From assembly GCF_900142915.1 (NCBI RefSeq), contig NZ_FRCM01000001.1, positions 372,001 to 436,000 of the forward strand: a stretch of DNA of 64,000 bases, read 5' to 3'. A model generated the notes under the pieces. The model was not told where the DNA came from, did no database searches, and saw nothing but the letters and a program-made list of their open reading frames with translations. Positions 17,985 through 41,308 of this stretch are shown here, in pieces. Both the position numbers and the translations under genes were made by a program. Source of the stretch: Mucilaginibacter sp. OK098. GTDB taxonomy: Bacteria; Bacteroidota; Bacteroidia; Sphingobacteriales; Sphingobacteriaceae. How positions within the stretch are numbered: the first letter of the stretch is position 1; each line of letters opens with the position of its first letter.

Positions 17985-18003
17985 TTAACAGTCATGTATC
18001 CTA

Positions 18004-19673: not shown

Positions 19674-19682
19674 AACAACGTT

Positions 19683-23455: not shown

Positions 23456-23563
23456 GAATGACTTTAGTGGAAATTATTATTTAGTATTTGCTAATATAAT
23501 TAGTAATTTCGTGCGTGTTCTCCGGAGATACTGAAGATTATGATGAATAGAGATAATTGTATG

Positions 23564-23842
23564 TCAGGAGTTATTCCAGCTTTCGATATAATCTTCGAGA
23601 TTGTCTGCTACGACCATAAGCTTATTCTTTGTTACCGGAATTTGAGCGGCAGATTCAGGGTGCTTGATATTACGTTGCAATTCTTTTAGGGCGACAACGT
23701 AAATTGTATCATCATCATCAAAATGCTGCGGATCTTCAGCGATGATATAAACGTTGTTTAGTTCTTTATCGTCCAAAGGGTTGATTATCTTACATATTTG
23801 GCCGGGACGGCTGGGTATGCTGATCTGTAATTCCATAATCAA
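23564..23842 (-). CDS. Small acidic hypothetical protein
   Basis: This 92-residue protein (MIMELQISIPSRPGQICKIINP) has a beta-rich start and a DDDDTIYVV segment. I do not recognise a family. The opening IPSRPGQICKIINP could be a small SH3-like barrel. It is a lone minus-strand gene between the channel gene and the restriction-modification genes. A role as an accessory to either system is not supported. Confidence 0.5.
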   Translation of the reverse strand: MIMELQISIPSRPGQICKIINPLDDKELNNVYIIAEDPQHFDDDDTIYVVALKELQRNIKHPESAAQIPVTKNKLMVVADNLEDYIESWNNS

Positions 23843-24051
23843 ATTTAACCATTTGAGGCTGGTTTTTCAGCAGACTATAAGTGACATGGGATAATATTGA
23901 TATGTATTTTTAATGAGGTTATTATTGGAGATATGGTCGTCTCTGAATACTTCTCGTGTTGTTTCAATGAAATAATTGCATAAGTATTTTGGCTTGTTTT
24001 AGCCGATTATAATCTGATTTGTTTAGTTTTGATTTTGGGATAAAGAGGTTT

Positions 24052-25221: not shown

Positions 25222-26176
25222 TCTCCTGAAAACCAAAGAGGAGTTAACTTCTTTGCTGGATAATTTTTCTGATCTTGTATCGTCAGGTACCGCCGACGTG
25301 CGGGCTCAGGTGCTGGAACTTATTCCTGCCTTCTATCTGCTAAGAAAACTGGGAACGAATATTCTTCCTGAAGGGGATAGCGTAGGTGCCAGGGAGCGTA
25401 TACTGATCTATTTGCAGAAATATCCGGAAAAGATTATCAGCAGTGATGAACTGCTGGTTGTTTCGGGTATAACAGATTATCAGCGGCGCATCAGAGAACT
25501 CCGTTCGGAAATGGGCTGGCCGGTATTGAGCGGCAACACCATCAAGAGTATGCTGAAAGAAGGTGACTGGGATAATATGGTAGCAGATGTTTCTGCTATA
25601 AAACCTGCTCAGTACATTTTTCTTCAATCCGGTCAGGATAAAGAAGCGGCCTACCGCTGGAAACTGAGCAACGTGATTCGTCGAAAGAATATTTCCATCA
25701 AAGATAAATTACTGGAGTTCTTCAAAAATAATATAGGCCGCAGTATTACCGGTGAAGAATTAAGTTACCTGGCTAAAGATGCAACAGAGTGGGCGCGGAG
25801 GGTGCGGGAACTCAGGACGGAAGAAGGCTGGCCGGTTAAAACGAGGAACACGGGGCGGCCGGAATTGCCGGTTGGTGTATATGTTTTCGAAGAAGATAAA
25901 CAGGCCGAGCAGCATGACCGTAAGATTGAAGACAGTACAAGAATTAAAGTACTGGAAAGGGATCATTTCAGCTGCCGTAAATGCGGCTGGAACCTCAATA
26001 TGATCCGGCCGGAAGATCCGCGCCAGTTCCTCGAACTGCATCACTTGGAATACCACGCTCATAAAGGAGAAAATTCAGAGGAAAATCTGATCACTATTTG
26101 TAATGTGCACCACGATTATATTCATAAACACAAAATGAAGAAAGATCAGGTGCTGGAATGGGTGGAAGAAAAATAG
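25193..26176 (+). CDS. HNH restriction endonuclease with duplicated recognition-like domain
   Basis: This 327-residue protein ends in an HNH domain with zinc-type cysteines Cys261, Cys264 and Cys303, the LELHHLEYH motif (His283-His284) and NVHHDYIHKH. Before it lie two copies of a winged-helix-like unit, each ending in a close variant of RIRELRSEMGWPV (about 99-111 and 202-215). The duplication suggests two DNA-reading modules. Overlap with the cytosine methyltransferase gene makes it the likely cognate restriction enzyme, cutting unmethylated DNA. Confidence 0.82.
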   Translation: MAKKKPSAFDLLKTKEELTSLLDNFSDLVSSGTADVRAQVLELIPAFYLLRKLGTNILPEGDSVGARERILIYLQKYPEKIISSDELLVVSGITDYQRRIRELRSEMGWPVLSGNTIKSMLKEGDWDNMVADVSAIKPAQYIFLQSGQDKEAAYRWKLSNVIRRKNISIKDKLLEFFKNNIGRSITGEELSYLAKDATEWARRVRELRTEEGWPVKTRNTGRPELPVGVYVFEEDKQAEQHDRKIEDSTRIKVLERDHFSCRKCGWNLNMIRPEDPRQFLELHHLEYHAHKGENSEENLITICNVHHDYIHKHKMKKDQVLEWVEEK

Positions 26177-26478: not shown

Positions 26479-26763
26479 ATGATTTCAGAAATCAAAAATT
26501 TGAATGATGTGGAGCGTTTTATGAAGCAACTGGTTGCCGAGGGAACAAATGCGCATCCAGACGAAGATTTTAACAATTACATTCATATGGAATCCGGTGA
26601 ACCGGCTTATACAACGGATGAAGCGGGACTGAGAAATGCTTTAATGGAGCAGGCCTTTGACGTGTGTGATCTGGCCGGTGTTGACGTTTATAACGTAATG
26701 CAGGAAATATTTCTTATAGAGACAGGGCTGGATAAATATATACCGTTGCCTTCGCAGGTGTAG
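26479..26763 (+). CDS. Small acidic hypothetical protein
   Basis: This 94-residue acidic protein (MISEIKNLNDVERFMKQLVAEGTNAHPDEDFNNYI) is related by pattern to short Bacteroidota hypothetical proteins with a HPDEDFNNYI segment. It precedes vsr by 32 bp on the same strand and may share its transcript. The function is unknown. Confidence 0.5.
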   Translation: MISEIKNLNDVERFMKQLVAEGTNAHPDEDFNNYIHMESGEPAYTTDEAGLRNALMEQAFDVCDLAGVDVYNVMQEIFLIETGLDKYIPLPSQV

Positions 26764-26795: not shown

Positions 26796-27227
26796 ATGGC
26801 AGACGTCCACTCCAAAGAAACAAGAAGTTATAATATGTCGCGGATACGAGGCAAGGACACCAAGCCGGAAATGCTCATTCGCAAATATTTATTTTCCCGT
26901 GGTTTCCGATTTCGGCTGCATGTTAAAGATCTTCCCGGTAAACCCGATATTGTTCTGCCAAAATATAAAACCGTCGTATTTATTCATGGCTGTTTTTGGC
27001 ATGGCCATGAAGGATGCCGGTATTATACGATCCCTAAAACCAGAACGGAATGGTGGCTTAATAAGATTACAGGAAACACAGTTAATGACAGCAAGGCACT
27101 CACTGCGTTGACAAAAAAAGGCTGGAGAATAATAACAGTATGGGAGTGTGAGCTAAAAAAGCAGGTAATCGAAAATACAATGGTGGAGTTAGAACAGCTT
27201 ATTATAAACAGCCACCCATTATCATAG
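26796..27227 (+). CDS. vsr: Very short patch repair endonuclease
   Basis: This 143-residue protein matches Vsr throughout: RSYNMSRIRGKDTKPEMLIR, then GKPDIVLPKYK with catalytic Asp51, and HGCFWHGH with His64, Phe67, Trp68 and His69 at the same numbers as in the E. coli enzyme. Vsr nicks next to T:G mismatches that arise when 5-methylcytosine deaminates, so it guards against mutations caused by C5 methyltransferases. Two such enzymes are encoded nearby. It converges with the drmB-like gene. Confidence 0.92.
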   Translation: MADVHSKETRSYNMSRIRGKDTKPEMLIRKYLFSRGFRFRLHVKDLPGKPDIVLPKYKTVVFIHGCFWHGHEGCRYYTIPKTRTEWWLNKITGNTVNDSKALTALTKKGWRIITVWECELKKQVIENTMVELEQLIINSHPLS

Positions 27228-27257: not shown

Positions 27258-29330
27258 TCAGTGATTGAACAAGCCGATTTCTTCCTGCGTAAGTGTCCCG
27301 ACTATGGTTGCCCTGTCCAGATATTGATTCATTCGCTCACAACTCGTTTCGGGGAGTAGAACACACGAATAGCAGGCCGCCAGATTTAGGCCCATAAAGC
27401 CCTGCCCGCTGTCAGCTGATATACAAAGCGGATCTGATGAACACCAACGGGCTTTATCGACTCCTTTAATTATGATATCTCTCAGATTTTCGGGCAGGCC
27501 CTTTTCGACGAGGCCTCCCAGCGAGCCTTCGGCGTCCGATGTGGTTGTATATATGAGAATCGCATTCATTTCTTCATTTGTTCCGGTTTTCGTGTCATCA
27601 CTGCAATAGATAATTTCTGCCAGTGATGAAAGGCTATATCCGCAATCTTCTGACAATTCTTTCAGCAAAATGTGTGAAAGTGTATGAAGAAACAGATAGC
27701 GCTTGCTGGTCATTTTTTTATTTTGACCGAAATCGGCGTTGGCCTGTCGCTGGTTGTTGTTAATTACATCCAGGCGCCTGTCGGGATATGCTTTTGTCCA
27801 TTCATTCAGTAAAGTATCGCTGAACCTGATAAGTATTCCTTCTCCTTTAACTTCAAATGCTGGCAACTCTCTGGTGTGAACAGGATCTTTTCTTGAATCC
27901 TGAATTCGCTCAAATTCTTCCAGTTGCTTTCCTTGCAGGTTGTCGGCCAGGTCAGCAAAAACAAGTTCTTCGCCCATCAAAGGTTTAACTCTGGTAAATC
28001 CCCGATAAACTTTCAGTGCCGAAATCTTTTCAAGGAGAACTACTTCGGAAAGCATTGCTGAAGGCAAACCGCTATTATATGCTGCACCATTGATCGCTCT
28101 TTTTTTGAACCATACCTTTTCATCATCATTTATTTCGCCCGTAAAAGCTTTAAACTCCTGGAGCCGGAGCAATTCTGAGCGGTCAGCCGCACGTTCAGTC
28201 GGAGATTCCCCGAAGAAATTAGAAATGAATTGTACAACCATCGCAAGTGGATGTCCTAACCGAAGTAATCCATGGTTGGGGTTTCTATTCACCACTTTTA
28301 AAATATAAGTTTTCCACTCCTCGTTGATCATTGACGCGTATTCATCAGGCGCATCATCAATCCTTTCGGTCATAAGAGTTTGTATTTTTTGCTGTACTTC
28401 AGGCGGGCACTGCTGGTCATAAGTGGACTCAGGAAGTAATATTCCACTATAAACTATAGGAAATATAACATTTCCGGCACCTTTTTGAAGAGTCCTTGGG
28501 AATCGTCGTTTAGCAGTATCAGTTAATTCGTCTCCGTTCCAGATCGTGCTTTCATCCGGAACGGTCACCACTTCTGAGATAAAGGAGTTATCATTGTGCC
28601 AACCTTTCCATGGTTTAGGAAGAAAACCATTTACGTATTGAAGATAATTACCCTCGCTCGCTGTTCTTTCCGCAAAAATCTCCTGATCAAAAATTTTGCT
28701 CAGGTCCCTCACGGCAACGAAGGTATTGTCTTCCTTCCTGCTTTCAATCTGTATATCCGCCAGGCTGGCAGAACCACCCTTTGACTTATAGTAAAGTTTA
28801 TTTCCCTTGTTACGTTCATCCGGCTTGTTTTTGTGAACATACCAGTCCCAGGGAAAGTCGTCAAGAAATCCTTCTTCCGTAGCTATAACAAATCTCATAG
28901 GAATGACTGCGGGCCCTTTGGAAGTCTGATGATTAAAGCATGCCGGACAATGGACCGGTTTCATTTCGGTATTATAACTTCTGCCTCTTGGCGTTGGCAT
29001 CATGCCTGATGCCCTGTTGGTCAGGTGCATAAGGCCACACTGTGGACAGTAATTCATTCTGGGAAAACGGATAGCCCAGGTACTTAGTGCGCTGATACCA
29101 TCCCTGGCAGGAGGTAGAATGAAAGCATCCACCTTAAATGCTTCTGCCAGTCTGGCGTCATTTACAGTGTTTCTGGAATTTGCCTGATTTTGTCCTGCCG
29201 GGTCCGGATTTCCCCAATCATTATACTGATGATCATGATTGAGCATAATCAATGATAACTGTGGAAAGTCAATCATTGAACCTGCCGGCCAGGTATGTAT
29301 AACTTGAGATTGCCTGATATCGTAACTCAT
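27258..29330 (-). CDS. drmB: DISARM protein DrmB (DUF1998)
   Basis: This 690-residue protein has N-terminal paired CxxC motifs (YCPQCGLMHL and HCPACFNHQ, about residues 93-135) and a C-terminal DUF1998-type region. The latter has HTLSHILLKELSEDCGY, then LAEIIYCSDD, CSSDPLCISADSGQG and AACYSCVLLPETSCE, holding a cysteine cluster. DUF1998 with cysteine clusters is the hallmark of DrmB, a core DISARM component that works with the DrmA helicase to recognise and block unmodified phage DNA. It is the last gene of the five-gene operon, directly abutting drmA. Confidence 0.85.
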   Translation of the reverse strand: MSYDIRQSQVIHTWPAGSMIDFPQLSLIMLNHDHQYNDWGNPDPAGQNQANSRNTVNDARLAEAFKVDAFILPPARDGISALSTWAIRFPRMNYCPQCGLMHLTNRASGMMPTPRGRSYNTEMKPVHCPACFNHQTSKGPAVIPMRFVIATEEGFLDDFPWDWYVHKNKPDERNKGNKLYYKSKGGSASLADIQIESRKEDNTFVAVRDLSKIFDQEIFAERTASEGNYLQYVNGFLPKPWKGWHNDNSFISEVVTVPDESTIWNGDELTDTAKRRFPRTLQKGAGNVIFPIVYSGILLPESTYDQQCPPEVQQKIQTLMTERIDDAPDEYASMINEEWKTYILKVVNRNPNHGLLRLGHPLAMVVQFISNFFGESPTERAADRSELLRLQEFKAFTGEINDDEKVWFKKRAINGAAYNSGLPSAMLSEVVLLEKISALKVYRGFTRVKPLMGEELVFADLADNLQGKQLEEFERIQDSRKDPVHTRELPAFEVKGEGILIRFSDTLLNEWTKAYPDRRLDVINNNQRQANADFGQNKKMTSKRYLFLHTLSHILLKELSEDCGYSLSSLAEIIYCSDDTKTGTNEEMNAILIYTTTSDAEGSLGGLVEKGLPENLRDIIIKGVDKARWCSSDPLCISADSGQGFMGLNLAACYSCVLLPETSCERMNQYLDRATIVGTLTQEEIGLFNH

Positions 29331-32300
29331 TTATTGATTTTTAATAGATACAGCAGAAGACACTTCAACATTTCTGAGGGTTTGCATAGTCGGTATGTGA
29401 TCAGACAGAACACTTTCAACAAACTGGGCGGGGGCATTGTATACTGCAGTATGATGTTGCAGTGTTGGCATAAATCCACCTCCAAGCGGGTCCGGCTGAA
29501 GAAAATCCATATACTTTGCAAGTCGTCTGTTTCCCGGGAGATCTTCTGTTTTGCCGAGAAACTCCTCTTTAATCTCGTTGACAGTATGCGCGATTTCTGA
29601 TCCCGCAGCCTGACCGTATATCCCGGTTCCCCGGTTAATAATATCAAGCATGATATCATCAATAAAAGCACGGAAATCGCTTCCTGAACCATCAAAGATA
29701 CCGTCATTGCCATCCAGAAAGAGACTTTTGGTCAGCGCAATTAACACGGTAGGTAAAACCTTTTCCAGCGCCGGGCGTGAAAAAGGGGTTACCGAACTTG
29801 ATTCTACATATGAATAATACGCCTGATGGAAGGCTTTAAATTTTTCATAATGAGATCTGTCTCTGTTTTTTGTCGGTGAAAGAAAAGTGAAAACGATACC
29901 TGGGCTTTCTCTTCCCACACGTGAACTAGCCTGAATATATTCCGCGGAAGTTTTTGGCTGCCCGTTGATAATCATGGTATTAAGCCTCGGTATGTCCATA
30001 CCAACAGAAATCATATTGGTGGCAGGAGCGATCTGAATCGGTTCATCTTCTCCCGGCATAAGTCTTGCAACCAATGCCATCAGTTCACTGTAGTTTTTCT
30101 TGCTGTCATCTGTAAATTCCAGACCGATATCCTTAAAGAACTTTTCTGTCATTAATTCATCGTTCCAGCGCGAACCTTTTGCAGACCGTAGTGCCGGAAA
30201 ACTACGAATACCGGATCTGTAAAGAAATTGAACAAGCGGATGAGTCTGATCTGCTCCCCCCGGGAGTGTGGTTTTTTCCAGCTTATCAAGGCCTGTGGTA
30301 ATTTCATCAGATGTCATCACACTCGACAATTCACATAGCATATGCTGATCAAAAGGCCTGATAAACGTTTTGAACTCGTTTGCAAGTAATTTCCTGTAAG
30401 CGACGATATCATCAGTTAGAAAAGTCCTGAACCTACCAAGCTCCTTTAACGCATTGAAATATACAATTAGCGTATAGTAATTATCCAGGTCTTTATTTGA
30501 TTCGGGAATGGCGGGAATTCTTTCCATAAGCACAGAAACAAGACGAATGAGAGCGGTACTGGTTGTAGTTCCTGATGGCATCAGGCCTACATAAAGTCTG
30601 TTTTTAGGATCATTCCCCTTGATTTTTTTTGCGTAGAAAGAATCGTCAGCATCAGTGCCTGGCGGGGGGAACTGCATAAATCCTTTTCGGCCGTAAAGGC
30701 GGAGGCACTGTTGTGCCGCATTTCTCACGGTTGCAGTTGCTCCGACTACTTTTGCAATATTTCCCCCGGCCTCACGACACATGCGATCGACCACTATTTC
30801 GTAAACACCGTAAATTGTTCCCAGCGCCGAACTGATAAGATGTAGTTCATCCTGAATAATAAGATCTGGTGAAGGGTAAATCCGCTGAATGTTTCCGTTT
30901 GTAAAAGCAGTATTAAAAAGATTAAAGCAAGTACTGTTCCAGGCTAACTGGACGAATTTATCTACAGTTGAAAATAATAGAGATGGTCTTTCTTCGTAAA
31001 TGACCTCATCCACTTCGTATACGGGAAGCGTATAATCAGCTCTGGAGTTCAGTGTCGAACTACTCACATGAAAATGGCACAGGGTATTAGTACAGCCAAT
31101 AAGATATGCCCCTGTTTCTAAGTTTCTGGAATTTTTCTTTCTGAAATACCCCCATCTGCCGGTGACGCTCCCGGCTAAGTTTTCTTTGACAAGCCGGTTT
31201 CCGCAGCAGGGACAGGAAAGAAGTGGCGGAGATGTTCGGTGAGTATCCGGTAAGCGGCCGCTATTAATCTGTGTGATAAAATTCCCGTAGTCACTCACTT
31301 GAGTCGTAATCTTGTTGGGTGTCATTGAACTACCCATCCAAATGCCATTTGAAATCCTTTTGGAACCATAATTTTCCGGCTCGTTTCTTCTAATCAGGTC
31401 ACATGCGCAAATCATAATTGAAGCTCTTTCAAATTGTTGTTTGTTGAGCAAACGAAGGGTGTAACGCATGAGCACGGAAACGCCTGCGCCACTATCAGGA
31501 TTCGTTTTTTTGAACTTCAATCTCCTATAAAAGATGGTGAAAGCAGTAAGGCCGAGGTAGGCTTCGGTTTTGCCGCCTCCGGTTGGAAACCATATCAGGT
31601 CGACAGTATCTCGGTCAGCCGATTGTATGTCTGTGATCCCTTCAATTTGTGATAAGAGAAAGGCCAGCTGGAAAGGTCGCCATCTCGCTAGGGTCCCTTT
31701 TCTTACCGTATCTGCATTTATATCCAGTACACCACTATTCCATAGTGACCCGGCAGTGGCATTAAATGGAATAAGGCGATAGTCGGGCATAGCGTCATCC
31801 AGCGCCGGTTTATTGTGTTGCACACGTTTCATTTCACGGCGATGTCTGCTGAAGTCAGCCATTACTCGTTGTATGAACATTGCGCGGTTAGCATCCTGAA
31901 AAGCTTTTTCTGCTTCAGGATCACTGAACAATAGTTTTATACCGTTGTTCATTCTTTCGGCAAGCGTTGAACATGACTTCAGATTAACCAGTGCCTGTGC
32001 ACGTAATTCCTCCGGCAGAGCCGAATCATTACTAGTCATACTATACTGATTTTCAATCCAGCTTTGGTACAGCTTAACAAATTCTTCAAGTTCTGCCTTT
32101 ATGATATCGCGGCTGTAGCTGGCCTCTTCTGATTTTCCGGCAAGCCTTTTAATATAAAGTACATTTCTTTCATGAAAAACCTCAGGGTTCAGGTCAACCC
32201 CATTTACTTTTTCCGCTGGCATTACTGCTGTTCGTACGCTTTTTACCGAACTATCATATTCATCCCATTCGACGGAAATACCATGACCCAGTGCCCATGT

Positions 32301-33107
32301 TTTGTAATTTCGGTACAAAAGCTTGAGATTAAGGTCTTCCTTACTTAGTAGTTTCAGATTAGTGAGATCTTCGAAACCTTCAAAACCCGCGGCATTATCA
32401 GCTGTTATTTCCGGTTGAAAAAGACAGTCCTCCGTTTTTTTCTGCTGTCGGAAATTTGGTGAATTTCGTTTATTTATTAGTGTAAAGGTTTTAATTTCAA
32501 GATCTGGTGTATGCCGGTAAGGTCTTGTAACCACAGAAAGCAAGGCTCTGTCACCCAGTGAGATCGTACTGATTTTTCCCTTTGAATCTGATTCTGTCGC
32601 TCCCTCGGTTATTCCATTTGTTATAATAATCTGCTGGCTGTGATGCTGATGTTTCCAAACGATTTTTTTTATAGCATGTCCGTTGGCTTCTGTTTTATCC
32701 GATTGCTTTTTTGTGTAGAATCCAAATTTGACATTAAGTGTCAGACTGGGGTTTTTCTTCGTGAGCACAGAAATTCCGGCAGCTGACGGTCTGAATTTTG
32801 TGGTGAGTTCAAGTTCATCGGGCTCAGAGAATCCATTGTTCTCCAGAGAGCTTCGCATTCTTTTTCCTGAGTCGCTTTCGGGAAGATCCTGTGCATCAAA
32901 ACTTTCTTCTTTATCAACATCCGGTGCTGTTGTAAATTCAGGAAGATCATCGTCAAAATCTGGTGTCTGTTGTAACCTTGGATAAAGAATTCCCATGGTG
33001 TAAAAATCCAGCGGATTTTTGTCAAGTTCTTCTCCGAGTCCATATATCGGACCGGAAAGCAGATCGTTGACTTCACTGGCTATTTTTGCACGGATATCTG
33101 TTTTCAT
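29331..33107 (-). CDS. drmA: DISARM helicase DrmA
   Basis: This 1258-residue protein is a superfamily 2 helicase: Walker A FPTGGGKTEAYLGL (about 505-518), DEXH-type QDELHLISS (about 750) and a motif VI-like QASSRVGRESPGIVFTFL (about 1060). Between them lies a cysteine-containing insert (SCPCCGNRL). The large size, the GRESPGIVFTFLSPTKNRDRSHYE block and the neighbouring DUF1998 gene identify DrmA of DISARM. DrmA with DrmB forms the core that engages incoming DNA. The end of the upstream NERD gene is 3 bp away. Confidence 0.88.
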   Translation of the reverse strand: MKTDIRAKIASEVNDLLSGPIYGLGEELDKNPLDFYTMGILYPRLQQTPDFDDDLPEFTTAPDVDKEESFDAQDLPESDSGKRMRSSLENNGFSEPDELELTTKFRPSAAGISVLTKKNPSLTLNVKFGFYTKKQSDKTEANGHAIKKIVWKHQHHSQQIIITNGITEGATESDSKGKISTISLGDRALLSVVTRPYRHTPDLEIKTFTLINKRNSPNFRQQKKTEDCLFQPEITADNAAGFEGFEDLTNLKLLSKEDLNLKLLYRNYKTWALGHGISVEWDEYDSSVKSVRTAVMPAEKVNGVDLNPEVFHERNVLYIKRLAGKSEEASYSRDIIKAELEEFVKLYQSWIENQYSMTSNDSALPEELRAQALVNLKSCSTLAERMNNGIKLLFSDPEAEKAFQDANRAMFIQRVMADFSRHRREMKRVQHNKPALDDAMPDYRLIPFNATAGSLWNSGVLDINADTVRKGTLARWRPFQLAFLLSQIEGITDIQSADRDTVDLIWFPTGGGKTEAYLGLTAFTIFYRRLKFKKTNPDSGAGVSVLMRYTLRLLNKQQFERASIMICACDLIRRNEPENYGSKRISNGIWMGSSMTPNKITTQVSDYGNFITQINSGRLPDTHRTSPPLLSCPCCGNRLVKENLAGSVTGRWGYFRKKNSRNLETGAYLIGCTNTLCHFHVSSSTLNSRADYTLPVYEVDEVIYEERPSLLFSTVDKFVQLAWNSTCFNLFNTAFTNGNIQRIYPSPDLIIQDELHLISSALGTIYGVYEIVVDRMCREAGGNIAKVVGATATVRNAAQQCLRLYGRKGFMQFPPPGTDADDSFYAKKIKGNDPKNRLYVGLMPSGTTTSTALIRLVSVLMERIPAIPESNKDLDNYYTLIVYFNALKELGRFRTFLTDDIVAYRKLLANEFKTFIRPFDQHMLCELSSVMTSDEITTGLDKLEKTTLPGGADQTHPLVQFLYRSGIRSFPALRSAKGSRWNDELMTEKFFKDIGLEFTDDSKKNYSELMALVARLMPGEDEPIQIAPATNMISVGMDIPRLNTMIINGQPKTSAEYIQASSRVGRESPGIVFTFLSPTKNRDRSHYEKFKAFHQAYYSYVESSSVTPFSRPALEKVLPTVLIALTKSLFLDGNDGIFDGSGSDFRAFIDDIMLDIINRGTGIYGQAAGSEIAHTVNEIKEEFLGKTEDLPGNRRLAKYMDFLQPDPLGGGFMPTLQHHTAVYNAPAQFVESVLSDHIPTMQTLRNVEVSSAVSIKNQ

Positions 33108-33110
33108 GTG

Positions 33111-34856
33111 TTATAAATTTGAATCCTCTCTGTCCTCAATAATTGTTTTAAACCTCCTGTCCAGAAAAAATATGCTTTGGGAGGTAGCCCTTGTATTTGC
33201 TATGTAGATCAGACTCATTTGAATATGATTATTAGTATCGTAGTTTTCCGGACCTGCGATCAGAATAAATTCATTTTCCAGACCTTTATAGGAATGGATG
33301 GTGCAGATATTAACCTTGCCGGCCATATGAAACGCGCACTCAGCAAAAGATCCCTTTCCGCTTTCCATCAATTGCGTAAGCTGCTTTTTTTCAGTACAGA
33401 GTATGGTGATATGTTCCTTTTTTATGCCCTCTTTTTCCAGTTTAAGGAGAAATTCATTGATTCGGTTGAACAGGTCTTGTCCGGGGTTGTAATATCTGAT
33501 TTCGCTGTTCCATGTCTGGGATATTCTGAGACAAGCCATTTCGGGCAATCCGGTTTGTACTGCTGCTCTTTTAATTGTCGATCGTGTATTCCTGCAATTC
33601 AGCTGTAAAAGAGTAACGACCGATGGATATGCTTCTCTGAAATATTGATAATATTCTTCAGCGTCTTCATTATAAATATTCTGATATTGCTTATCCAGGA
33701 ATACCGTCCAGTTACCTGATTCAAATCCCCCTTTAAGCAGTTTCCCTAATGCCTCCATTTGATATTCATTAAGAATATCCTGCCCCTCATCGATGATAAG
33801 GTAATCGTAACAGCCGGTCTTCGACGCTTTAAGATTTCTGTTAAAAAAGAGTGGAAGATCACGGGACCAGTAAACCTGATCGCCGGTCACGGGTGCGGAC
33901 CTGCCATTAAGGTAGGTTTCGTCTTTAAGCAGTTCATGGAGGTTCCTGATTTCATAATTTTCGTTAATTCCACCTTCAGATGCTTTGCGGTTCAGATGGT
34001 CTGACAGATTTTTGTTAAAACAGACCAGCAGGGTTTTCTTTGATTGCATTACAGATCGTTTCAGCAGCTCAAGCGCCAGAATGGTTTTGCCAGTTCCCGG
34101 ACCACCCATGATCAGGCCACCCTTGCCGGGATTATATTTTAAATTGTCAAGTACATACATCTGCATACCTGTTAGCCTGCCCAGCTCATGGTGGCCTTTA
34201 GCCAGTAAATCCGATATGGGTAAAGTAAAATGTAGTTCCTGCCTGAAATATTTACTGATCGTAGTCAGTTCCTTATAACTGATACCCGGTCGGTTTCTGA
34301 ATTGTAAATGATTGGACCAGTAAGCTTTTATTTTCTTTATGTATTCCACCAATCCATCGGGAGATTTGTGATTATTGTAATCATACAGCAGTTGCGGGTC
34401 GAACTCCATCGCTCCTGAAGTAGATTTATGAAATTCATTTGGCCTGATGCAATCAGGAAATATAACACCAATGCCAAAAACAAGCCTTTCTGCCACGGAA
34501 CGGGTATTGAAAAGTTTTGGCAGCAGAACGTCCCTTGTGCGGAAAAGTGAATTATAGGCCTGTTTAAACGGATTTCCCTTTTCAGTCGCCCCCATAACAT
34601 ACCATTCATTTTGCAGAGAATCGTATTTGATTTGCCCACCCTTTACCTCGAAAAAAAGAATGCAGTCTTTATCCAGATATACAAAGTCTATTTCTCCCTT
34701 TATTTTTTTGCTTCCGGTATCGGACAGGTCAAGCGAATGAAAAAAATAATGATCGCTGTTACTAAAATAGCCGCTGCTGTTTGCAGCCAGATAAATTTTC
34801 TTTTCTGCTTCTGAGTTGAATTCGTATCCGTTGAGTGTGGCTGGGCTGATCGGCAT
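33111..34856 (-). CDS. NERD-domain UvrD-like helicase within the DISARM operon
   Basis: This 581-residue protein starts with a NERD domain (about residues 10-130: EKKIYLAANSS, GEIDFVYLDKDCILFFEVKGG), whose GEIDF plus EVKGG layout is that of restriction-endonuclease-like folds. A superfamily 1 helicase follows with Walker A GGPGTGKT (about 246-253), DEGQD (about 357), and C-terminal THSYKGLENEFILI and IANTRA. It lies between drmE and drmA with overlapping or 3-bp junctions, so it is an integral part of the operon. Described class 2 systems carry the phospholipase-D protein DrmC, which is missing here; this protein may supply the nuclease. Confidence 0.8.
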   Translation of the reverse strand: MPISPATLNGYEFNSEAEKKIYLAANSSGYFSNSDHYFFHSLDLSDTGSKKIKGEIDFVYLDKDCILFFEVKGGQIKYDSLQNEWYVMGATEKGNPFKQAYNSLFRTRDVLLPKLFNTRSVAERLVFGIGVIFPDCIRPNEFHKSTSGAMEFDPQLLYDYNNHKSPDGLVEYIKKIKAYWSNHLQFRNRPGISYKELTTISKYFRQELHFTLPISDLLAKGHHELGRLTGMQMYVLDNLKYNPGKGGLIMGGPGTGKTILALELLKRSVMQSKKTLLVCFNKNLSDHLNRKASEGGINENYEIRNLHELLKDETYLNGRSAPVTGDQVYWSRDLPLFFNRNLKASKTGCYDYLIIDEGQDILNEYQMEALGKLLKGGFESGNWTVFLDKQYQNIYNEDAEEYYQYFREAYPSVVTLLQLNCRNTRSTIKRAAVQTGLPEMACLRISQTWNSEIRYYNPGQDLFNRINEFLLKLEKEGIKKEHITILCTEKKQLTQLMESGKGSFAECAFHMAGKVNICTIHSYKGLENEFILIAGPENYDTNNHIQMSLIYIANTRATSQSIFFLDRRFKTIIEDREDSNL

Positions 34857-34857
34857 A

Positions 34858-37425
34858 TTATTTAATATATATTCCTAAAACCGGTTTAATATCAACATGG
34901 TCGACGAAAGCGTTGAGCAGCTTTTCATCAAAAATTCCATCCTCTCCGTAATGAATGCCTTTCAGATTAAAAATCAGTTTTCGCACAGCACTTCTTACAA
35001 ACATAATCTTATGCCTTTTTAAAGTCCTGTTTTCAATCAGATAACGTTCTTTCATTTCGTCCTCAATTACGTCCATTTTGATAAGCGTAAGCAGCAGCTT
35101 TTTGAAGTTATGCGGTTGTATTGTTTCCCCATCGATCCAGTTTCTTATTGTACCGGAACTAATACTAAAGCCATTTTCTATCAGCAGATCCCTGAACTGA
35201 TCGGTTTCATTGTGATCCAATGTAATACAATTATTGATTTTCTTCCGCCATTCTTCGTCATACTTCAGGGAAGAAGCCATTTTCTCATCCTGTGACAACG
35301 CATTTTTCAAAATGTTTTTCATTTCCGCCCGGTTTTTCGGCAAAAGCACGAGGTCGCCAGTTACAAGATGTTGAACTTCTTTTTGTACGGAGTCCTTTTC
35401 TCCTTCAGCATGGTCTTCGAAATAGAAAACGGATTTATTTTCAGGCCATTCCACATGAGTACCGTCCTCAAAAAAGACAAAATAGGTCTTTACACCTTTT
35501 TTTGTGGCTTTTGTGGTGTCATTATTAAAGAAATTCAGCACCCCGTGGACGTACTCTGAAATATCTTCAATATCAGCAGAGTCGTCAGTTTCTGCAAAAA
35601 ATTCTGCTTCATCTGCTAAAGCGATTAAACCGTTATCTTGTTTGTCCGAAGTTTCCGATGGGGGTTCAAGATTAAGGAGATTGTATTTAATATCTGTACC
35701 GCTTATCCCTGCAAGACCTGCAACCGATTTATTAAAGTGATTAATAATTATTTTGCTGCTTTTTTTGTTAACAAGGAACACCTGTTTATTGCTTAACAGG
35801 TTGACAAGTGCATTGTTTAATACGTCTTTATTCCAGCTGAGATATATGATGAGATCCGGCAGATCATTGTTCGTCTCTCTGATCTGCAAAAACTCCTTCG
35901 CTGTGCAAAAGGACATACTTGTCTCTTTTAAAACCAAAGCGAGTTCGGATTCAAAAAAACTGCGGTCGTCCTTATCGGTGTTATTGGTAACAAATACAAT
36001 CTTTTTTAAGACGGTATTATTTTGTGCAATAATATGGCGTATATCCGTAAGATTACCGCCAGAAATGTTTTGTGAAGCAAGAAAATCCCTTGTTTGCTGA
36101 ATCAGACCTTCATCCTGGTTGTTACTAAACCATATCCGCTGATATTCATCTAATTCCTGATCTATTATCTTATTCAGTTTAAGAAAGGTTTCCGGTTTAT
36201 AAAATGACAACAACTTATCACGTAAATTATATAAATGACCGATTTGTCTGATGGTTTGTCCGTTGCAGAAATTGTTCCGCCCCAATTCTTTCCACTGATG
36301 CAAAAGGTGTTCTGCGCTGGTCTGTATGGACTCCAGCATTTTGTCAGTCATTCTTTTTACCGAAATGAGAGGTTCAGGCATATCAAGACCATCAAGTACG
36401 ATTTTTTCCCTTGGTGTAACCTGCCAGGCCTCCGATCTGATCCCGTATTTTGCCATCCATTCGTGAACGGAGAAATTTCTGTTTTTACAGATCAGGTAAA
36501 TGTCTTTCATTACTGTTCCGAGGCGGTCGAAATAAATCTCTTTTAATTCGCTTATTCTCTCATCCAATACGCCAGATCTTTCCCATATTTTAAGCAGTTC
36601 ATCGAAATCATCAATGATTATTGTATTCAGATGGTCGATTTTGTTTTTGCCAGCCTCAATAATGTGGTTAAATGCCATCACACTATCGTTTCTCGCTACA
36701 AGAACGGTTACCGGCTGATTTTTTGTTCTGGGCGCGGAAATCAGGCTAAGTTTAATGGCATCTTCGGCAAAAGATGCCGTTTGAATGTTTAAATGCTGCC
36801 GTAGATCGTGTCCAGCTACCCGCAGATTCCGAAGGAGTGTTGAAAATTTAGAAACGCTGGAAAAAAGAATAACGCCTTCGTGGTTTCTGCCACCGTCAAG
36901 CACAGGTAATGTGAATATGTTATGATGACTCGCATTATCCAATTGGGCGAATGCGCTCAGCCGCTCACGGATATCTGCCGAATTTTTATAGCTATCCCAT
37001 TTTAGTTTATAGTCGTCCTCGAACAATAATTCATGCTCACTGATTCCTGAACGGAGCTGGATTGTGCGGTTCAAAAAATTTATCCCGGTAATGGAACAAA
37101 TGCTGGAGTTATATCTGACTGACTTTTTGCCAGGCTCGAATTTTTCAGTTTTGAAGCGCTGAGCAGTAAGGGCTTTATTAACTGCTTTTCTGTAAAAACC
37201 GACAGCAACGTAAAAAGGCAGAAAGTGAATACTCGCTGAATTCTCCTGTAAATACAACTCTATAATTCTGTTTTTTGAGTCAACAGTGTTCTGGTATATC
37301 AGGAAGGGCAATAAAGTATTCTCACTGAAGGCGGAAACTTCCGCGTCATTGAGATTAAATCCCGTATTTTTAAGATCGGGAAATTCCGTTGAAATATAAT
37401 CAGCTATGTATTTTTTATCCAGCAT
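34858..37425 (-). CDS. drmE: DrmE-like protein of class 2 DISARM
   Basis: This 855-residue protein has no motif I can read as an enzyme. It has a LNTIIIDDFDELLKIW segment around residue 255-275 resembling a Walker B strand, and a C-terminal part with a possible HTH (NGFSISSGTIRNWIDGETIQPHNFKKLL, about 760-790). Its size and place directly after the cytosine methyltransferase and upstream of drmA fit DrmE, the function-unknown protein specific to class 2 DISARM. The call is based mainly on context and length. Confidence 0.62.
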   Translation of the reverse strand: MLDKKYIADYISTEFPDLKNTGFNLNDAEVSAFSENTLLPFLIYQNTVDSKNRIIELYLQENSASIHFLPFYVAVGFYRKAVNKALTAQRFKTEKFEPGKKSVRYNSSICSITGINFLNRTIQLRSGISEHELLFEDDYKLKWDSYKNSADIRERLSAFAQLDNASHHNIFTLPVLDGGRNHEGVILFSSVSKFSTLLRNLRVAGHDLRQHLNIQTASFAEDAIKLSLISAPRTKNQPVTVLVARNDSVMAFNHIIEAGKNKIDHLNTIIIDDFDELLKIWERSGVLDERISELKEIYFDRLGTVMKDIYLICKNRNFSVHEWMAKYGIRSEAWQVTPREKIVLDGLDMPEPLISVKRMTDKMLESIQTSAEHLLHQWKELGRNNFCNGQTIRQIGHLYNLRDKLLSFYKPETFLKLNKIIDQELDEYQRIWFSNNQDEGLIQQTRDFLASQNISGGNLTDIRHIIAQNNTVLKKIVFVTNNTDKDDRSFFESELALVLKETSMSFCTAKEFLQIRETNNDLPDLIIYLSWNKDVLNNALVNLLSNKQVFLVNKKSSKIIINHFNKSVAGLAGISGTDIKYNLLNLEPPSETSDKQDNGLIALADEAEFFAETDDSADIEDISEYVHGVLNFFNNDTTKATKKGVKTYFVFFEDGTHVEWPENKSVFYFEDHAEGEKDSVQKEVQHLVTGDLVLLPKNRAEMKNILKNALSQDEKMASSLKYDEEWRKKINNCITLDHNETDQFRDLLIENGFSISSGTIRNWIDGETIQPHNFKKLLLTLIKMDVIEDEMKERYLIENRTLKRHKIMFVRSAVRKLIFNLKGIHYGEDGIFDEKLLNAFVDHVDIKPVLGIYIK

Positions 37426-37433
37426 AATTTATT

Positions 37434-38993
37434 TCAATCTGCATTGGTTAATTCTTCGTGTTTGTTCAGTACGTCCCGGACGATTTGTCCGATCTGAAAA
37501 GCAAGATAAGGCGGCACAGCATTGCCGACCTGATGAAACTGCTGGGTTCTGGGGCCACAAAAGAAGTAATTGTCCGGAAATGTCTGGATGCGGGCAGCCT
37601 CTCGTACCGTCAGACTCCGGCATTGCTGAGGGTCATAATGGATAAAGTAATGTCCGTCTTTCGAGATATGACTCGTTACAGTAGTAGCGGGCTCGTCCGG
37701 CAGCTGTACTCGGAACCTGTCATTAAATTTTCCGGATTCTACATTCTCATGGTCGGGAACAAGATCGTCGCCGAATTCCCTGTAATCCTGCATTCTCGGA
37801 AACTTTCCGTGGACCTTGCTGTAAAGTGCAGCGAACATATATCTTTTCAGATCCAGTGACAAATGAGCACGGGATGCGTGCTGAACTACACCTTCTGTTT
37901 TTTTATCATTAAACCAGCTATAAAGCGGATGGTCTGTACTGAGTGTGTCTGTGACATAGGAAAGATATTCCACACCAGTGCCGACCGGAAATCCGCTGGG
38001 CTCAGCATTACCTTCCGGAAAATGAGATGAAAGTTCCGATGCGTATTTACTGACTCTGCCGGACCAGTTTTCATAAGAGTCTTTGACGGGGAGATAATGC
38101 CGCTTCTTTTTTAATATTCCACCGGTAACAATCTCTTCTGTATGTGAATAATCGCGATATATTCCGCTTCTTACTTTTGGCAACATTCCGATCACTGAAC
38201 CAAGATTGACCTTTTGTGATTTCTTAAGGATTCCGGGTTCTGCTTTAACATCTTCCCTTACACCCAGCAATATAACACGGTGCCTTTTCTGCGGAACACC
38301 GTAGTTTTCAGACCGGATAAGAAAGTCGCTGTCTGTTTTAATCTGATCGGTAACCAGAGAATGAATTCTATATTTTGAGGAAACATGCTCCGGGAAAACG
38401 GAGGATGGATCGGAAAGGTCTGCCAGTATTCGTGGAAATATTTTTTCACCGTTCAATTCGGCGGACAACAATCCCTTAACATTTTCCATAACGAATACCG
38501 CGGGTTGATGTGCTGCGATAATACGGAGGTATTCCTTGTAAAGATGAACCCGGTGATCATCCTCATGAACTCCGCCAACCCGTGACCTGCCGACCAAGGA
38601 GTATGCCTGGCAGGGTGGCCCACCGATCAATACCCAGTTGTTTTCATGCTCAAGTTCCTCTGATATCCGGGAGTCAATTTCTTCTGAAGATGTCGCTCCC
38701 AGTGTTGCCTGCCAGGCTTCCTTAATGGCACCCTGATAAGCTTCCGGGTATTGATCAAACAGTTCGGCCTGTGTAATTGTCTGCCGAAGAAAGTCGTAAT
38801 ATTCCGCAGGCAATGCGTTTACCGGAAACTGACGGAGAAAAGACCGCAGTGTGAGCGTCTGATGCGCAAAAGCATCTTTTTCAACGGATAGTTTTATTTT
38901 AAAAACCCGGTTGCCCTGAGTATCCACAAGAGTACTAAAGCCTTCGGCTAAACCGCCGGGACCGGCAAACAGATCAATGATAGGAACAGGCAT
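37434..38993 (-). CDS. drmMII: DISARM cytosine-5 methyltransferase DrmMII
   Basis: This 519-residue C5 methyltransferase has motif I DLFAGPGGLAEGF, motif IV GGPPCQAYS with catalytic Cys128, motif VI VFVMENV (Glu170), QKRHRVILLGVR and QVGNAVPPYLAF. The long insert between motifs I and IV and the DDHRVHLYKEYLRIIAAHQP segment recall DrmMII. It marks host DNA so that the DISARM core ignores it. It is the first core gene of the operon, 8 bp before drmE, and lies 38 bp after the DUF262 gene. Confidence 0.83.
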   Translation of the reverse strand: MPVPIIDLFAGPGGLAEGFSTLVDTQGNRVFKIKLSVEKDAFAHQTLTLRSFLRQFPVNALPAEYYDFLRQTITQAELFDQYPEAYQGAIKEAWQATLGATSSEEIDSRISEELEHENNWVLIGGPPCQAYSLVGRSRVGGVHEDDHRVHLYKEYLRIIAAHQPAVFVMENVKGLLSAELNGEKIFPRILADLSDPSSVFPEHVSSKYRIHSLVTDQIKTDSDFLIRSENYGVPQKRHRVILLGVREDVKAEPGILKKSQKVNLGSVIGMLPKVRSGIYRDYSHTEEIVTGGILKKKRHYLPVKDSYENWSGRVSKYASELSSHFPEGNAEPSGFPVGTGVEYLSYVTDTLSTDHPLYSWFNDKKTEGVVQHASRAHLSLDLKRYMFAALYSKVHGKFPRMQDYREFGDDLVPDHENVESGKFNDRFRVQLPDEPATTVTSHISKDGHYFIHYDPQQCRSLTVREAARIQTFPDNYFFCGPRTQQFHQVGNAVPPYLAFQIGQIVRDVLNKHEELTNAD

Positions 38994-39031: not shown

Positions 39032-41308
39032 TTAATTTAGGGATTGATTTTCTATAATATTCAGGAGAATTTTGTTTTCCTGTTGCGGCTCCCCAATACG
39101 CCAGTTTTCAAATTGCAAAGTATTATAAAATATCCGGTATAAATATTTTATACGTTCTTCCACCGCGGTTTGCCATGCTTTACGTCGGTTGTCAGGCCAT
39201 TTAGCGGGATTGCCTGCACAGCCAAACCATGAATCCCGGTTATCAGGGTTTATACAGGATGCTTCAGTAAAATCTTTTTCTGTGGTATATTTAAGTTGAC
39301 GTGCAACTTTATCTTCACTGAGGTCTGGCATATCCATGCGGAGTTTTTCAGCCGGACAAATATTGCCGTCAGAACGGTTGGCCCACAACGGCCAGATCCT
39401 GTAGTTTCCGATTGACCCTAGATATCGTCCTCGGCGTTCTCTGAACGCATTTTCATGGTCAGGTGTCGCGCCCGGAAGATTGTTTCGTGAACCCTGTCCG
39501 AAAATGTGGGAGGCAGGGAGTATATGATCATAGTCATATGGGGTATCACTGGCATCTTCACTCATGGGATTATAACCGGGAAACCACACAGGAATATCAG
39601 ATCGCTGAAACCATAGTAACAACTCTTTTTTCCACCAGAAAGAAAGCCTGAAGGGACGAAGCGGATCGGTTTCTTCTCCCAGTAGCGCATCCCAATGTCG
39701 CAGGTAACCATCAGCAGGCGCATTTCCAAATGAAAGGATCTGATCCGGCGCGGGTACAACCTTTGCCAGATCGTTTTCAAGACATTCGAGATATATTTCA
39801 CGATCCGGAAAAATGGTATTGTTTGTCGAAGTTATAACTCTTACTGCTGCTTTGGATACTTTGTCGGGGTCGTCGAATCCGACAAGAGAATAAGACAAAT
39901 ATCTGATGATCCCTTTTCTGCTGACCTCAAAATCTATTTCCTGATCCAGTTGCCGGTCTATCCAGATAAGAACGGGGTGTATCAGGGATGCCCGCAGATG
40001 AAGCAAAAGCTTTCGAGGTAACCCCGGATCGCCTGAAGGGCCATTCTCACGAAATATTGCCAGCTGACAAAAATGACTTAGAATGCGTGTAAAGCGGGAC
40101 ACCTGCAAATCATCCGGTAACATGAGCCTTTTCATTTCATCAAGAAAGAATGATTGATCATTAGGGCTTCTTTCCGCTATCCATTGTCTGAATTTTGTAA
40201 CACTAGGCTTTGGATCATCATTTTTCTTCGCCCGCAGTGCTGCAATCCTTGATGCGGCCATGACCAGCTTGGTAGGTGTGAAAAGATAACCTATCTCAGG
40301 ATTATTTAAAATCTGGGAAACGAGATTATAGGCTTCATCCCAAGATGATTTCAGAAGGGAGTAAGCCATTTCTTCCCCCTCAAGCGGAGTGCCGTTAGCG
40401 TTTACACGTGTAAAAAGCACTTCCAAAGGGTCTATATTTTTTGTGGTGTTTTGTGATACCTCTTCTTCTGTGTGAAGCAAAAGTGAAATATGCCGTTGCC
40501 TGACTGCGTCTTTTCTTAAAAGATTTCGCATGCTTTTAAGTACGTCTTTGAAACAGCTGGTTGGTTCTGTTGTCCTGTTCGATTTATATTGTTCAGGAAC
40601 ATACTCCATAATGAAATTCCAGTCGGCTTCGCGGAAATTGCCGGAATAGCCGCCGCAGGCTTCAATTAAGATATCAACGGGTACGGGTAGTCGTGACTGT
40701 ATGGGCCATGGGCTGAATCCATTGAGGCGCTGGTACTCATCAAGCACGGTTCCATGATTAATTTTTAACTGATAATCATAGTGAAGATTGCTTTCTGCCA
40801 GTACTTTCCTTGCATTCTGCTTTTCCGGATCGGAGAGTTTCCTAACCGGTGTTTCCTTGTTCATTCCCCATGGCTGATAGTTGGTCAGCAATCTGAATAT
40901 AAACTTTCTGTCGTTATCCTCGGGATTTTGAAAAGGCAATTGAGGATCAAGATCTATATATAATCTTGCGGAACCGGTTGCCTTAAATCCCAATAACAGT
41001 GCGCGTGTTCTTTGCTGACCGTCCAATAGAAAATAGCCGTTCCCCGGTTGCTCTCTTTGAATACCGTCAAGCACCGACCTCGCAACAGTTTTTTGCTTTC
41101 TTTCAGAAAGATAAAAGCTTCCAATGGGGAAGCCCCGAAATAATGAATCCCACAGCCGTTCGATCTGAGCAACATTCCACACAGAATTTCGCTGAATGGG
41201 CGGTAACTGAATGCAGTCGAACTCGCCGTGACTTTTATTCAAAAACAACTCGGCATAGTGAATAAACGAAATATGGCCGATATCGGTTGATTGGAAAAGG
41301 TCTGGCAT
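39032..41308 (-). CDS. DUF262 / HNH (GmrSD-like) nuclease
   Basis: This 758-residue protein has the DUF262 signature: IQLPPIQRNSVWNVAQIERLWDSLFRGFPIGS, then LLDGQQRTRALLL (about 95-107), a ParB/Srx-like NTPase motif. A C-terminal HNH-like region follows (YDYDHILPASHIFG, about 603-616, then SIGNYRIWPLWANRSDG). GmrSD-type enzymes of this layout cut modified phage DNA in an NTP-dependent way. It precedes drmMII by 38 bp on the same strand, so it is probably in the DISARM transcript or a second system stacked with it. Confidence 0.82.
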   Translation of the reverse strand: MPDLFQSTDIGHISFIHYAELFLNKSHGEFDCIQLPPIQRNSVWNVAQIERLWDSLFRGFPIGSFYLSERKQKTVARSVLDGIQREQPGNGYFLLDGQQRTRALLLGFKATGSARLYIDLDPQLPFQNPEDNDRKFIFRLLTNYQPWGMNKETPVRKLSDPEKQNARKVLAESNLHYDYQLKINHGTVLDEYQRLNGFSPWPIQSRLPVPVDILIEACGGYSGNFREADWNFIMEYVPEQYKSNRTTEPTSCFKDVLKSMRNLLRKDAVRQRHISLLLHTEEEVSQNTTKNIDPLEVLFTRVNANGTPLEGEEMAYSLLKSSWDEAYNLVSQILNNPEIGYLFTPTKLVMAASRIAALRAKKNDDPKPSVTKFRQWIAERSPNDQSFFLDEMKRLMLPDDLQVSRFTRILSHFCQLAIFRENGPSGDPGLPRKLLLHLRASLIHPVLIWIDRQLDQEIDFEVSRKGIIRYLSYSLVGFDDPDKVSKAAVRVITSTNNTIFPDREIYLECLENDLAKVVPAPDQILSFGNAPADGYLRHWDALLGEETDPLRPFRLSFWWKKELLLWFQRSDIPVWFPGYNPMSEDASDTPYDYDHILPASHIFGQGSRNNLPGATPDHENAFRERRGRYLGSIGNYRIWPLWANRSDGNICPAEKLRMDMPDLSEDKVARQLKYTTEKDFTEASCINPDNRDSWFGCAGNPAKWPDNRRKAWQTAVEERIKYLYRIFYNTLQFENWRIGEPQQENKILLNIIENQSLN

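What the first reader, a model, noticed from the sequence alone, without database searches (positions are those of the whole stretch)
27258..38993. Class 2 DISARM variant with a NERD-helicase in place of DrmC
Five minus-strand genes with junctions of 0-8 bp encode DrmMII-, DrmE-like, NERD/UvrD-helicase, DrmA- and DrmB-type proteins. Seen directly: C5 methyltransferase motifs, SF2 helicase with QASSRVGRESPG, cysteine-rich DUF1998-type protein, and a NERD domain fused to an SF1 helicase. Known: described class 2 DISARM has DrmC, a phospholipase-D protein. Inferred: the NERD-helicase replaces that role, so this may be a distinct DISARM subtype.
Basis: partly seen in the sequence, partly recalled or inferred. 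Interest (0 to 1): 0.8.

Follow-up and report, generated by a model that had tools for sequence, protein, structure and literature searches.

The report
DISARM defence carrying a NERD nuclease-helicase
A bacterial anti-phage DISARM gene cluster carries a fused DNA-cutting and DNA-unwinding enzyme and lacks the nuclease of textbook clusters, and the same arrangement turns up in many unrelated bacteria, which points to a candidate for the cutter that some DISARM systems seemed to lack.

Summary
Five minus-strand genes (27258-38993, junctions 8, 1, 3 and 0 bp) encode DrmMII, a diverged DrmE, a NERD + SF1 helicase fusion, DrmA and DrmB; no DrmC was found at 20001-48000.

It is not a one-off. Of 113 DrmA loci examined, 37 carry a NERD-helicase within 8 kb on the same strand, 30 carry DrmC, 46 neither, none both. 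NERD loci come from at least seven phyla by the organisms named. NERD residues E18, D57, E70, K72, Q99 and the Walker residues are invariant in 38 of 38 proteins. The NERD-helicase tree follows the DrmA tree nearly as closely as DrmB's does (r 0.81 against 0.87; DrmMII 0.23), so it behaves as a core part, not a passenger.

Qualifications: the NERD/DrmC exclusion is mostly clade-level (1-3 informative independent pairs). Here NERD lies upstream of drmA, not in the DrmC slot, and nothing shows that DrmC was displaced. In 10 other loci, one class 1-like, NERD does directly follow drmB. Nuclease function and cooperation with DrmAB are inferred.

Verdict: a recurrent, apparently undescribed DISARM form; new variant of a known kind.

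The parts
37434..38993 (-). drmMII: C5-cytosine DNA methyltransferase, 519 aa
   Evidence: PADLOC DrmMII 1.8e-92; Pfam PF00145 2.1e-44
34858..37425 (-). drmE-like gene, 855 aa
   Evidence: Pfam DrmE_C 30.8 bits over cut-off 27; profile grown from it reaches canonical DrmE of L159/L160; no PADLOC DrmE hit
33111..34856 (-). NERD-SF1 helicase fusion, 581 aa
   Evidence: Pfam NERD, AAA_19 and SLFN-g3 over cut-offs; AlphaFold2 model mean pLDDT 85.4, helicase part like UvrD Z 30.8
34524..34805 (-). NERD nuclease domain (residues 18-111 by Pfam match); putative active site E18, D57, E70-x-K72, Q99
   Evidence: residues invariant in 38 of 38 aligned NERD-helicases
33114..34181 (-). SF1 helicase core (about residues 226-581), Walker A K257, Walker B D356-E357
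   Evidence: residues invariant in 38 of 38
29331..33107 (-). drmA: YprA-family SF2 helicase, 1258 aa
   Evidence: PADLOC DrmA 5.9e-186; NCBIfam DISARM_DrmAS 7.6e-243, under cut-off
27258..29330 (-). drmB: DUF1998/MZB-type partner of DrmA, 690 aa
   Evidence: NCBIfam DrmB_fam 335 bits over 240; Pfam MZB

Best explanation
This is a DISARM anti-phage operon of a recurrent form in which a NERD-SF1 helicase is the dedicated nuclease-motor partner of the DrmAB core, the part that DrmC (phospholipase D fold) is thought to play elsewhere. Likely working: DrmMII marks host DNA; DrmAB (with DrmE) engages unmodified phage DNA carrying a single-stranded end; the NERD-helicase then loads on the exposed strand and its NERD (PD-(D/E)xK) domain cuts as the SF1 motor moves. 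Shown here: operon structure, intact catalytic residues, recurrence, co-inheritance with DrmA, absence of DrmC. Inferred: nuclease activity, recruitment by DrmAB, order of events. The DrmAB step follows the model of Bravo et al. 2022 (PMC9142583, passages read).
For: NERD-helicase within 8 kb on the DrmA strand in 37 of 113 DrmA loci, in a contiguous same-strand run in 35; in 36 of 37 the nearest same-strand ORF on one side is within 56 bp, ORF starts being rough. Reverse tests: in a 395-genome phylum sample 16 genomes match a NERD-helicase profile at E <= 1e-25, 12 of them beside DrmA, but 11 of the 12 built the profile and the 12th (L035) gave the same tree row as one of them. In plasmids, two queries taken from DISARM loci find 16 records; 9 lie beside DrmA. 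Tree distances: DrmA-NERD r 0.81 (n 35), DrmA-DrmB 0.87 (n 35), DrmA-DrmMII 0.23 (n 28); DrmA-Vsr 0.05 (n 19). Catalytic residues 38 of 38. No locus with both NERD and DrmC, 0 of 113. L106 (class 1-like by motif) carries NERD inside a branch of 19 DrmA with 12 DrmC, and L046 lies in a group of six with L137, a DrmC locus.
Against: No functional data. The exclusion of DrmC and NERD is mainly clade-level: 14 independent pairs, on average 2.1 informative, all opposite, p 0.25 or more. 46 of 113 loci show neither gene, so DISARM may need no dedicated nuclease; Bravo et al. report DrmC dispensable. NERD-helicases also occur without DISARM (6 of 16 plasmid records; L030), so the gene is not DISARM-specific. 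In the window NERD is not in the DrmC position.
Confidence: 0.6

Rival explanations
1. The NERD-helicase works upstream or beside DrmAB: it processes DNA ends to make the single-stranded tails that DrmAB recognises, or acts as a back-up effector that damages the host genome when the first defence fails.
For: Bravo et al. propose unmodified 5'-overhang DNA as the activating substrate of DrmAB (PMC9142583, passages). A 2026 BREX survey reads the NERD domain of PglW as a back-up or suicidal effector (PMC12839542, passages). The gene lies before drmA in 24 of 37 loci.
Against: In 13 of 37 loci it lies after DrmA, directly after drmB in 10, where DrmC normally stands.
Confidence: 0.2
2. It is a non-essential accessory, as DrmC appears to be, widening the phage range without being needed.
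For: DrmC is dispensable and often missing (PMC9142583); 46 of 113 DrmA loci show neither gene, and sister DrmA lineages differ (L029 with NERD beside L063 without).
Against: Catalytic residues invariant in 38 of 38 and co-inheritance nearly as tight as DrmB's; but DrmC is also tightly co-inherited in its own loci (0.90, n 22), so this does not exclude the rival.
Confidence: 0.13
3. It is an independent solo defence gene that merely sits in the same defence island.
For: NERD-helicases exist elsewhere: the best PADLOC profile is named for reverse-transcriptase-associated ones (RTasNERD-Hel), and 6 of 16 plasmid records have no DISARM genes near.
Against: Tight junctions inside the operon between drmE and drmA, recurrence in at least seven phyla by the organisms named, tree congruence with DrmA.
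Confidence: 0.07

Closest known systems
Class 2 DISARM (drmMII, drmE, drmA, drmB, drmC)
   Same: DrmA, DrmB, DrmMII and a DrmE relative in one operon; canonical examples seen here: L159, L160
   Different: No DrmC; a NERD-helicase gene between drmE and drmA; order MII-E-NERD-A-B instead of E-A-B-C-MII; DrmE strongly diverged
Class 1 DISARM
   Same: DrmA-DrmB core; one operon that is class 1-like by motif labels (L106) carries NERD after drmB
   Different: The window has a C5 methyltransferase and a DrmE relative; none of its five genes matched a DrmD or adenine methyltransferase profile
NERD-helicase of DRT systems (PADLOC RTasNERD-Hel) and NERD+UvrD profile C3a187
   Same: Same two-domain architecture; best PADLOC match of the protein (1.5e-36); L106 protein 5.4e-90
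   Different: Here in a DISARM operon; no gene scanned matched a reverse transcriptase family
TALON and other YprA-family systems (PMC12458937)
   Same: YprA-family helicase with a NERD-type nuclease
   Different: TALON is described (passages) with an ARMADA-like YprA homologue, TPR-CSD and TBP genes; our DrmA and DrmB are DISARM type and in two genes, with DrmMII and a DrmE relative
RmuC/ShdA-associated DISARM-like operons (PMC10270631)
   Same: Precedent for another gene family, co-opted by the Shield system, embedded in DISARM-like operons (passages)
   Different: Different domain; not a NERD-helicase

Membership tests
DISARM (DrmAB core with methyltransferase) | DrmA YprA-family helicase | tested here: met
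   PADLOC 5.9e-186; NCBIfam 7.6e-243, though 809 bits is under the equivalog cut-off of 950
DISARM (DrmAB core with methyltransferase) | DrmB (DUF1998/MZB) as a separate gene next to drmA | tested here: met
   NCBIfam 335 over 240; adjacent ORF, 0 bp gap
DISARM (DrmAB core with methyltransferase) | DNA methyltransferase in the operon | tested here: met
   DrmMII 1.8e-92
DISARM (DrmAB core with methyltransferase) | Protection against phage | not testable with these tools
Class 2 DISARM, canonical five-gene form | DrmE | tested here: met
   Pfam DrmE_C over its cut-off and profile link to canonical DrmE; against: no PADLOC DrmE hit
Class 2 DISARM, canonical five-gene form | DrmC phospholipase-D protein in the operon | tested here: not met
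   No DrmC at window 20001-48000; in the rest of the genome one weak DrmC-profile hit, 4.8e-13, in a 484-aa frame with two PLD domains elsewhere on the contig. So filed as a variant, not as the canonical form; Bravo et al. say DrmC is often missing from DISARM operons
NERD nuclease (PD-(D/E)xK) | E...D...ExK...Q active-site pattern | tested here: met
   E18, D57, E70, K72, Q99 invariant in 38 of 38; Pfam NERD over cut-off; that these form the active site is recalled knowledge of the fold
NERD nuclease (PD-(D/E)xK) | Nuclease activity | not testable with these tools
   Needs purified protein
SF1 helicase | Walker A/B and SF1 fold | tested here: met
   GGPGTGKT and DEGQD in the protein; residues invariant; UvrD Z 30.8, rmsd 3.0 over 341 residues
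TALON | TPR-CSD and TBP genes in the operon | not tested
   No dedicated search; Pfam labelled none of the five operon genes so

The most novel reading that the evidence does not exclude
DISARM is a DrmAB platform with an exchangeable nuclease slot, and the NERD-helicase form is a third major DISARM type, spread over at least seven phyla and found in class 2 and class 1-like layouts, in which a processive helicase-nuclease destroys the DNA that DrmAB opens. It would supply the missing nuclease in many DrmC-less DISARM operons.
Probability: 0.5. Interest if true: 0.68.

Novelty: new variant of a known kind. Interest (0 to 1): 0.6.

Why it matters
[quoted passage not shown] A conserved, co-inherited helicase-nuclease in about a third of the DrmA loci sampled here (37 of 113, a sample that leans towards DrmA like the window's) is a direct candidate that single gene removals can test. 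It may also improve detection: PADLOC's DrmE profiles miss the DrmE of the window, L048 and L055.

Tried and rejected
DrmE structure: the AlphaFold2 model from 16 sequences has mean pLDDT 59.8, so I did not search it; no PDB sequence matched the DrmE profile at E <= 1. Foldseek and VIA-align mainly tested the helicase part of the NERD model; the NERD domain was not folded apart.

Hidden DrmC in NERD loci: small ORFs with an HxKx(3-5)D motif in five NERD loci (L035, L041, L054, L060, L120) were scanned. Two are HNH_2, one is a macro domain, two have no Pfam match; none is PLD. The genes after drmB in L028 and L029 match no DrmC profile. In whole genomes, the DrmC profile gives hits in 3 of 12 NERD-DISARM genomes (G000 4.8e-13, G143 1.3e-5, G104 2.2e-6 and 9.0e-4), in frames of 383-519 aa away from the operons, and rings in 9 of 14 control genomes; the two DrmC genomes used as positive controls give 2.9e-96 and 9.7e-29.

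Rows left out. Of 19 non-own DrmA genomes, G361 was not fetched with flanks. Three of 80 genome-contig loci (L096, L113, L123) gave no usable DrmA ORF. L030 (a NERD hit) and L047 (a weak DrmE hit) have no DrmA. In the congruence tests L035 (same DrmA row as L034) and L099 (truncated NERD) were dropped; eight near-identical DrmC loci of 30 were removed. In the pair test 98 of 112 tree rows were used; the others lacked enough flank. The Fisher p of 1.5e-6 ignores phylogeny and should not be used alone. The class 1-like label of L106 rests on motifs (DEAH, NPPY), not on DrmD/DrmMI profiles.

Mobile-element ends: no second copy of the mnmE 3' end was found in the window. The own-genome search gave six places, the mnmE copy included; the other five were not followed.

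Literature: all 10 paper searches used. DISARM + NERD + drmA gave 1 paper, DISARM + 'NERD domain' 0, DISARM + 'nuclease-related domain' 2, NERD + DUF1998 1: PMC12458937 (outline, passages and figure legends seen; supplements not openable) and PMC10952713 (passages seen; its table lists NERD for Mokosh I and Nhi-like). DISARM + NERD alone was not searched. NERD + helicase + 'phage defence' gave 5 papers; of these PMC12839542 was seen in passages, PMC4365076 and PMC9009780 in the listing only. One search matched 71 papers, 25 listed. PMC8565338 and PMC12926258 were seen in passages. Ofir et al. 2018, which described DISARM, is not held; what I say of its classes is recalled or taken from citing papers.
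Full report
WHAT IS THERE. The window lies in a 7.2 Mb, 23-contig genome. On its minus strand five ORFs at 27258-38993 follow one another with gaps of 8, 1, 3 and 0 bp. Profile searches name them DrmMII, a DrmE relative, a NERD + SF1 helicase fusion, DrmA and DrmB. The DrmE label is the weakest: Pfam DrmE_C is just over its cut-off and PADLOC's DrmE profiles do not fire. A profile grown from the window protein through relatives finds the DrmE of two canonical class 2 operons, which PADLOC does call DrmE, so homology is fair. No DrmC was found at window 20001-48000. In the rest of the genome the only DrmC-profile hit is weak (4.8e-13) and falls in a 484-aa frame with two PLD domains, elsewhere on the same contig. 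The DrmC profile also rings in 9 of 14 control genomes, so I take this as general PLD background.

IS THE NERD GENE PART OF THE SYSTEM? In a sample of 395 genomes of the phylum, 20 hold DrmA at E <= 1e-40; flanks were fetched for 18 of the 19 others. Eleven of those 18 have a NERD-helicase in the same-strand gene run, as does the window. Adding 77 usable of 80 loci from genome contigs and 17 from viral contigs gives 113 loci with DrmA. Of these, 37 have a NERD-helicase within 8 kb on the same strand, 30 a DrmC, 46 neither and 0 both. With at least 2.5 kb upstream, 4.5 kb downstream and DrmB found, the figures are 33, 22, 28 and 0 of 83. By the organisms named in the records the NERD loci include Bacteroidota, Bacillota, Pseudomonadota, Spirochaetota, Actinomycetota and Verrucomicrobiota, and Deinococcota (L149); several records are MAGs.

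REVERSE DIRECTION. A profile of 11 NERD-helicases finds 16 of 395 genomes at E <= 1e-25. Twelve have it beside DrmA by coordinates, but 11 of the 12 built the profile and the 12th (L035) gave the same row as L034, so this test is partly circular. Of the other four, G042 has no DrmA in its 19 kb stretch, G069 is not among the DrmA genomes, and G058 and G245 are partial matches near contig starts. In the plasmid collection the window protein itself has no match, but two other members, both from DISARM loci (L067, L106), find 16 distinct records. In 9 the gene is beside DrmA: in five DrmA and DrmB were read, and four are judged only by the coordinates of DrmA matches, one of these in two pieces and one across the record start. 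In one Burkholderia plasmid it is beside broken copies. Six have no DrmA/DrmB within about 6 kb. The two queries missed L149, so the list is not complete. The NERD-helicase is therefore a shared module that DISARM uses often, not a DISARM-only gene.

CO-INHERITANCE. If NERD were a loose neighbour its tree should not follow DrmA's. In 35 NERD loci the tree distances of DrmA correlate with DrmB at r 0.87 and with NERD at 0.81; with DrmMII in 28 loci only 0.23. Dropping the two outliers L038 and L041 leaves 0.87, 0.80 and 0.13. Spearman values are 0.80, 0.68 and 0.23. A slower tree method gave 0.73 for DrmA-NERD in 36 loci, 0 of 2000 permutations as high. Vsr in 19 loci gives 0.05. DrmE in 16 loci gives 0.89, and in 22 dereplicated DrmC loci DrmA-DrmC gives 0.90. 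So NERD is inherited with the DrmAB core much as DrmC is in its own operons, while the methyltransferase and Vsr are exchanged. The DrmMII figure may be lowered by picking up unrelated C5 methyltransferases. Congruence shows co-inheritance, not contact.

CATALYTIC STATE. E18, D57, E70, K72 and Q99 (NERD), Walker A K257 and Walker B D356-E357 are invariant in 38 of 38 proteins, 37 in DrmA loci plus L030; L099 is truncated and lacks the later helicase motifs. The model of the window protein (25 sequences, pLDDT 85.4) has an SF1 core closest to UvrD (Z 30.8, rmsd 3.0 over 341 residues). Nuclease activity is inferred from this.

DOES IT REPLACE DrmC? Position: in 24 of 37 loci NERD is 5' of DrmA, as in the window, and in 13 it is 3', in 10 of them directly after DrmB, where DrmC stands in DrmC loci. 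On the 125-row DrmA tree the NERD label needs at least 15 changes over well-supported branches, so gains and losses were many. L106, class 1-like by its DEAH + NPPY motifs, has NERD after DrmB inside a branch of 19 with 12 DrmC. L046 (NERD) sits in a supported group of six with L137 (DrmC). These are the best cases of a real swap. Against it, the phylogenetically independent test has on average only 2.1 informative pairs of 14 (all opposite, p 0.25 or more), so the exclusion is not established beyond clade structure. Among 25 DrmE-positive loci, 17 have NERD, 8 neither and 0 DrmC. A separate search for DrmE_C in 299 genomes of one order (centred on G395, the Rossellomorea genome) found 8: two canonical E-A-B-C-MII operons and six with a shorter DrmE and neither gene in the stretches fetched. 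The window's lineage may therefore never have had DrmC.

HOW IT LIKELY WORKS. Bravo et al. (PMC9142583, passages read) propose that unmodified 5'-overhang DNA activates DrmAB and leave the nuclease step open, noting that DrmC is dispensable and often missing. I propose that in this form the NERD-helicase follows DrmAB on the opened phage DNA and cuts it. Shown: genes, residues, recurrence, co-inheritance. Inferred: recruitment, cutting, order.

WHAT IS KNOWN. In the searches made (listed under Tried and rejected), DISARM together with NERD terms, or NERD with DUF1998, appears in two papers only. PMC12458937 mentions NERD for TALON and says DISARM typically has DrmC and that its tree holds many uncharacterised DISARM-like classes; its supplements were not readable. 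PMC10952713 lists NERD for other systems. RmuC-type genes in DISARM-like operons are in print (PMC10270631). I therefore call the NERD form apparently undescribed as such, with that limit.

VERDICT. Real, recurrent and testable: a new variant of a known kind.

Noticed in passing
window 12413-26176: The operon lies near what looks like an integrative mobilizable element beside mnmE (12413-13849): tyrosine integrase 14679-15800, MobC/NikA-like 18004-18441, relaxase 18396-19673, TraG-type coupling protein 19683-21683, then a C5 methyltransferase 24019-25221 and an HNH nuclease-like gene 25193-26176 (HNH just under its Pfam cut-off). Its ends were not found.
   Followed up: partly
window 26796-27227: A Vsr mismatch endonuclease gene converges on drmB. 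Vsr is in 19 of 38 NERD loci, 6 of 32 DrmC loci, 5 of 40 loci with neither and 2 of 16 undetermined, but its tree does not follow DrmA (r 0.05, n 19); in the window it may belong to the neighbouring restriction-modification genes.
   Followed up: partly
window 39032-41308: A DUF262/GmrSD-type gene lies 38 bp upstream of drmMII on the same strand; only one other sampled locus (L053) has a relative.
   Followed up: partly
window 26479-26763: A 94-aa ORF without Pfam match has relatives in three other NERD-DISARM loci of the same phylum (L033, L034, L037) and was found in no other sampled locus (ORFs of 90 aa or more).
   Followed up: no
window 33111-34856: Human SLFN11 and SLFN14 are among the best structural matches of the NERD-helicase, over model residues 1 to 565-569 (SLFN11 7zel Z 29.2, rmsd 7.8 over 423 residues; Foldseek best is SLFN11, E 1.8e-18), so the match reaches into the N-terminal part. 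Whether the Schlafen linker is related to NERD was not tested.
   Followed up: no
L183, L185, L187: On three alphaproteobacterial plasmids a NERD-helicase directly follows a very large gene (about 1600-2000 aa; annotated DUF3883 in L183 and DEAD/DEAH helicase in L187, unannotated in L185) without DrmA/DrmB, possibly a different defence system that uses the same module.
   Followed up: no
L161-L166, L097: A DISARM form with a short DrmE_C protein (about 500-525 aa) behind a 319-337 aa gene (322 in L097), then drmA and drmB, with neither DrmC nor NERD, recurs in the order of G395 (6 of 8 DrmE_C loci; L097).
   Followed up: no
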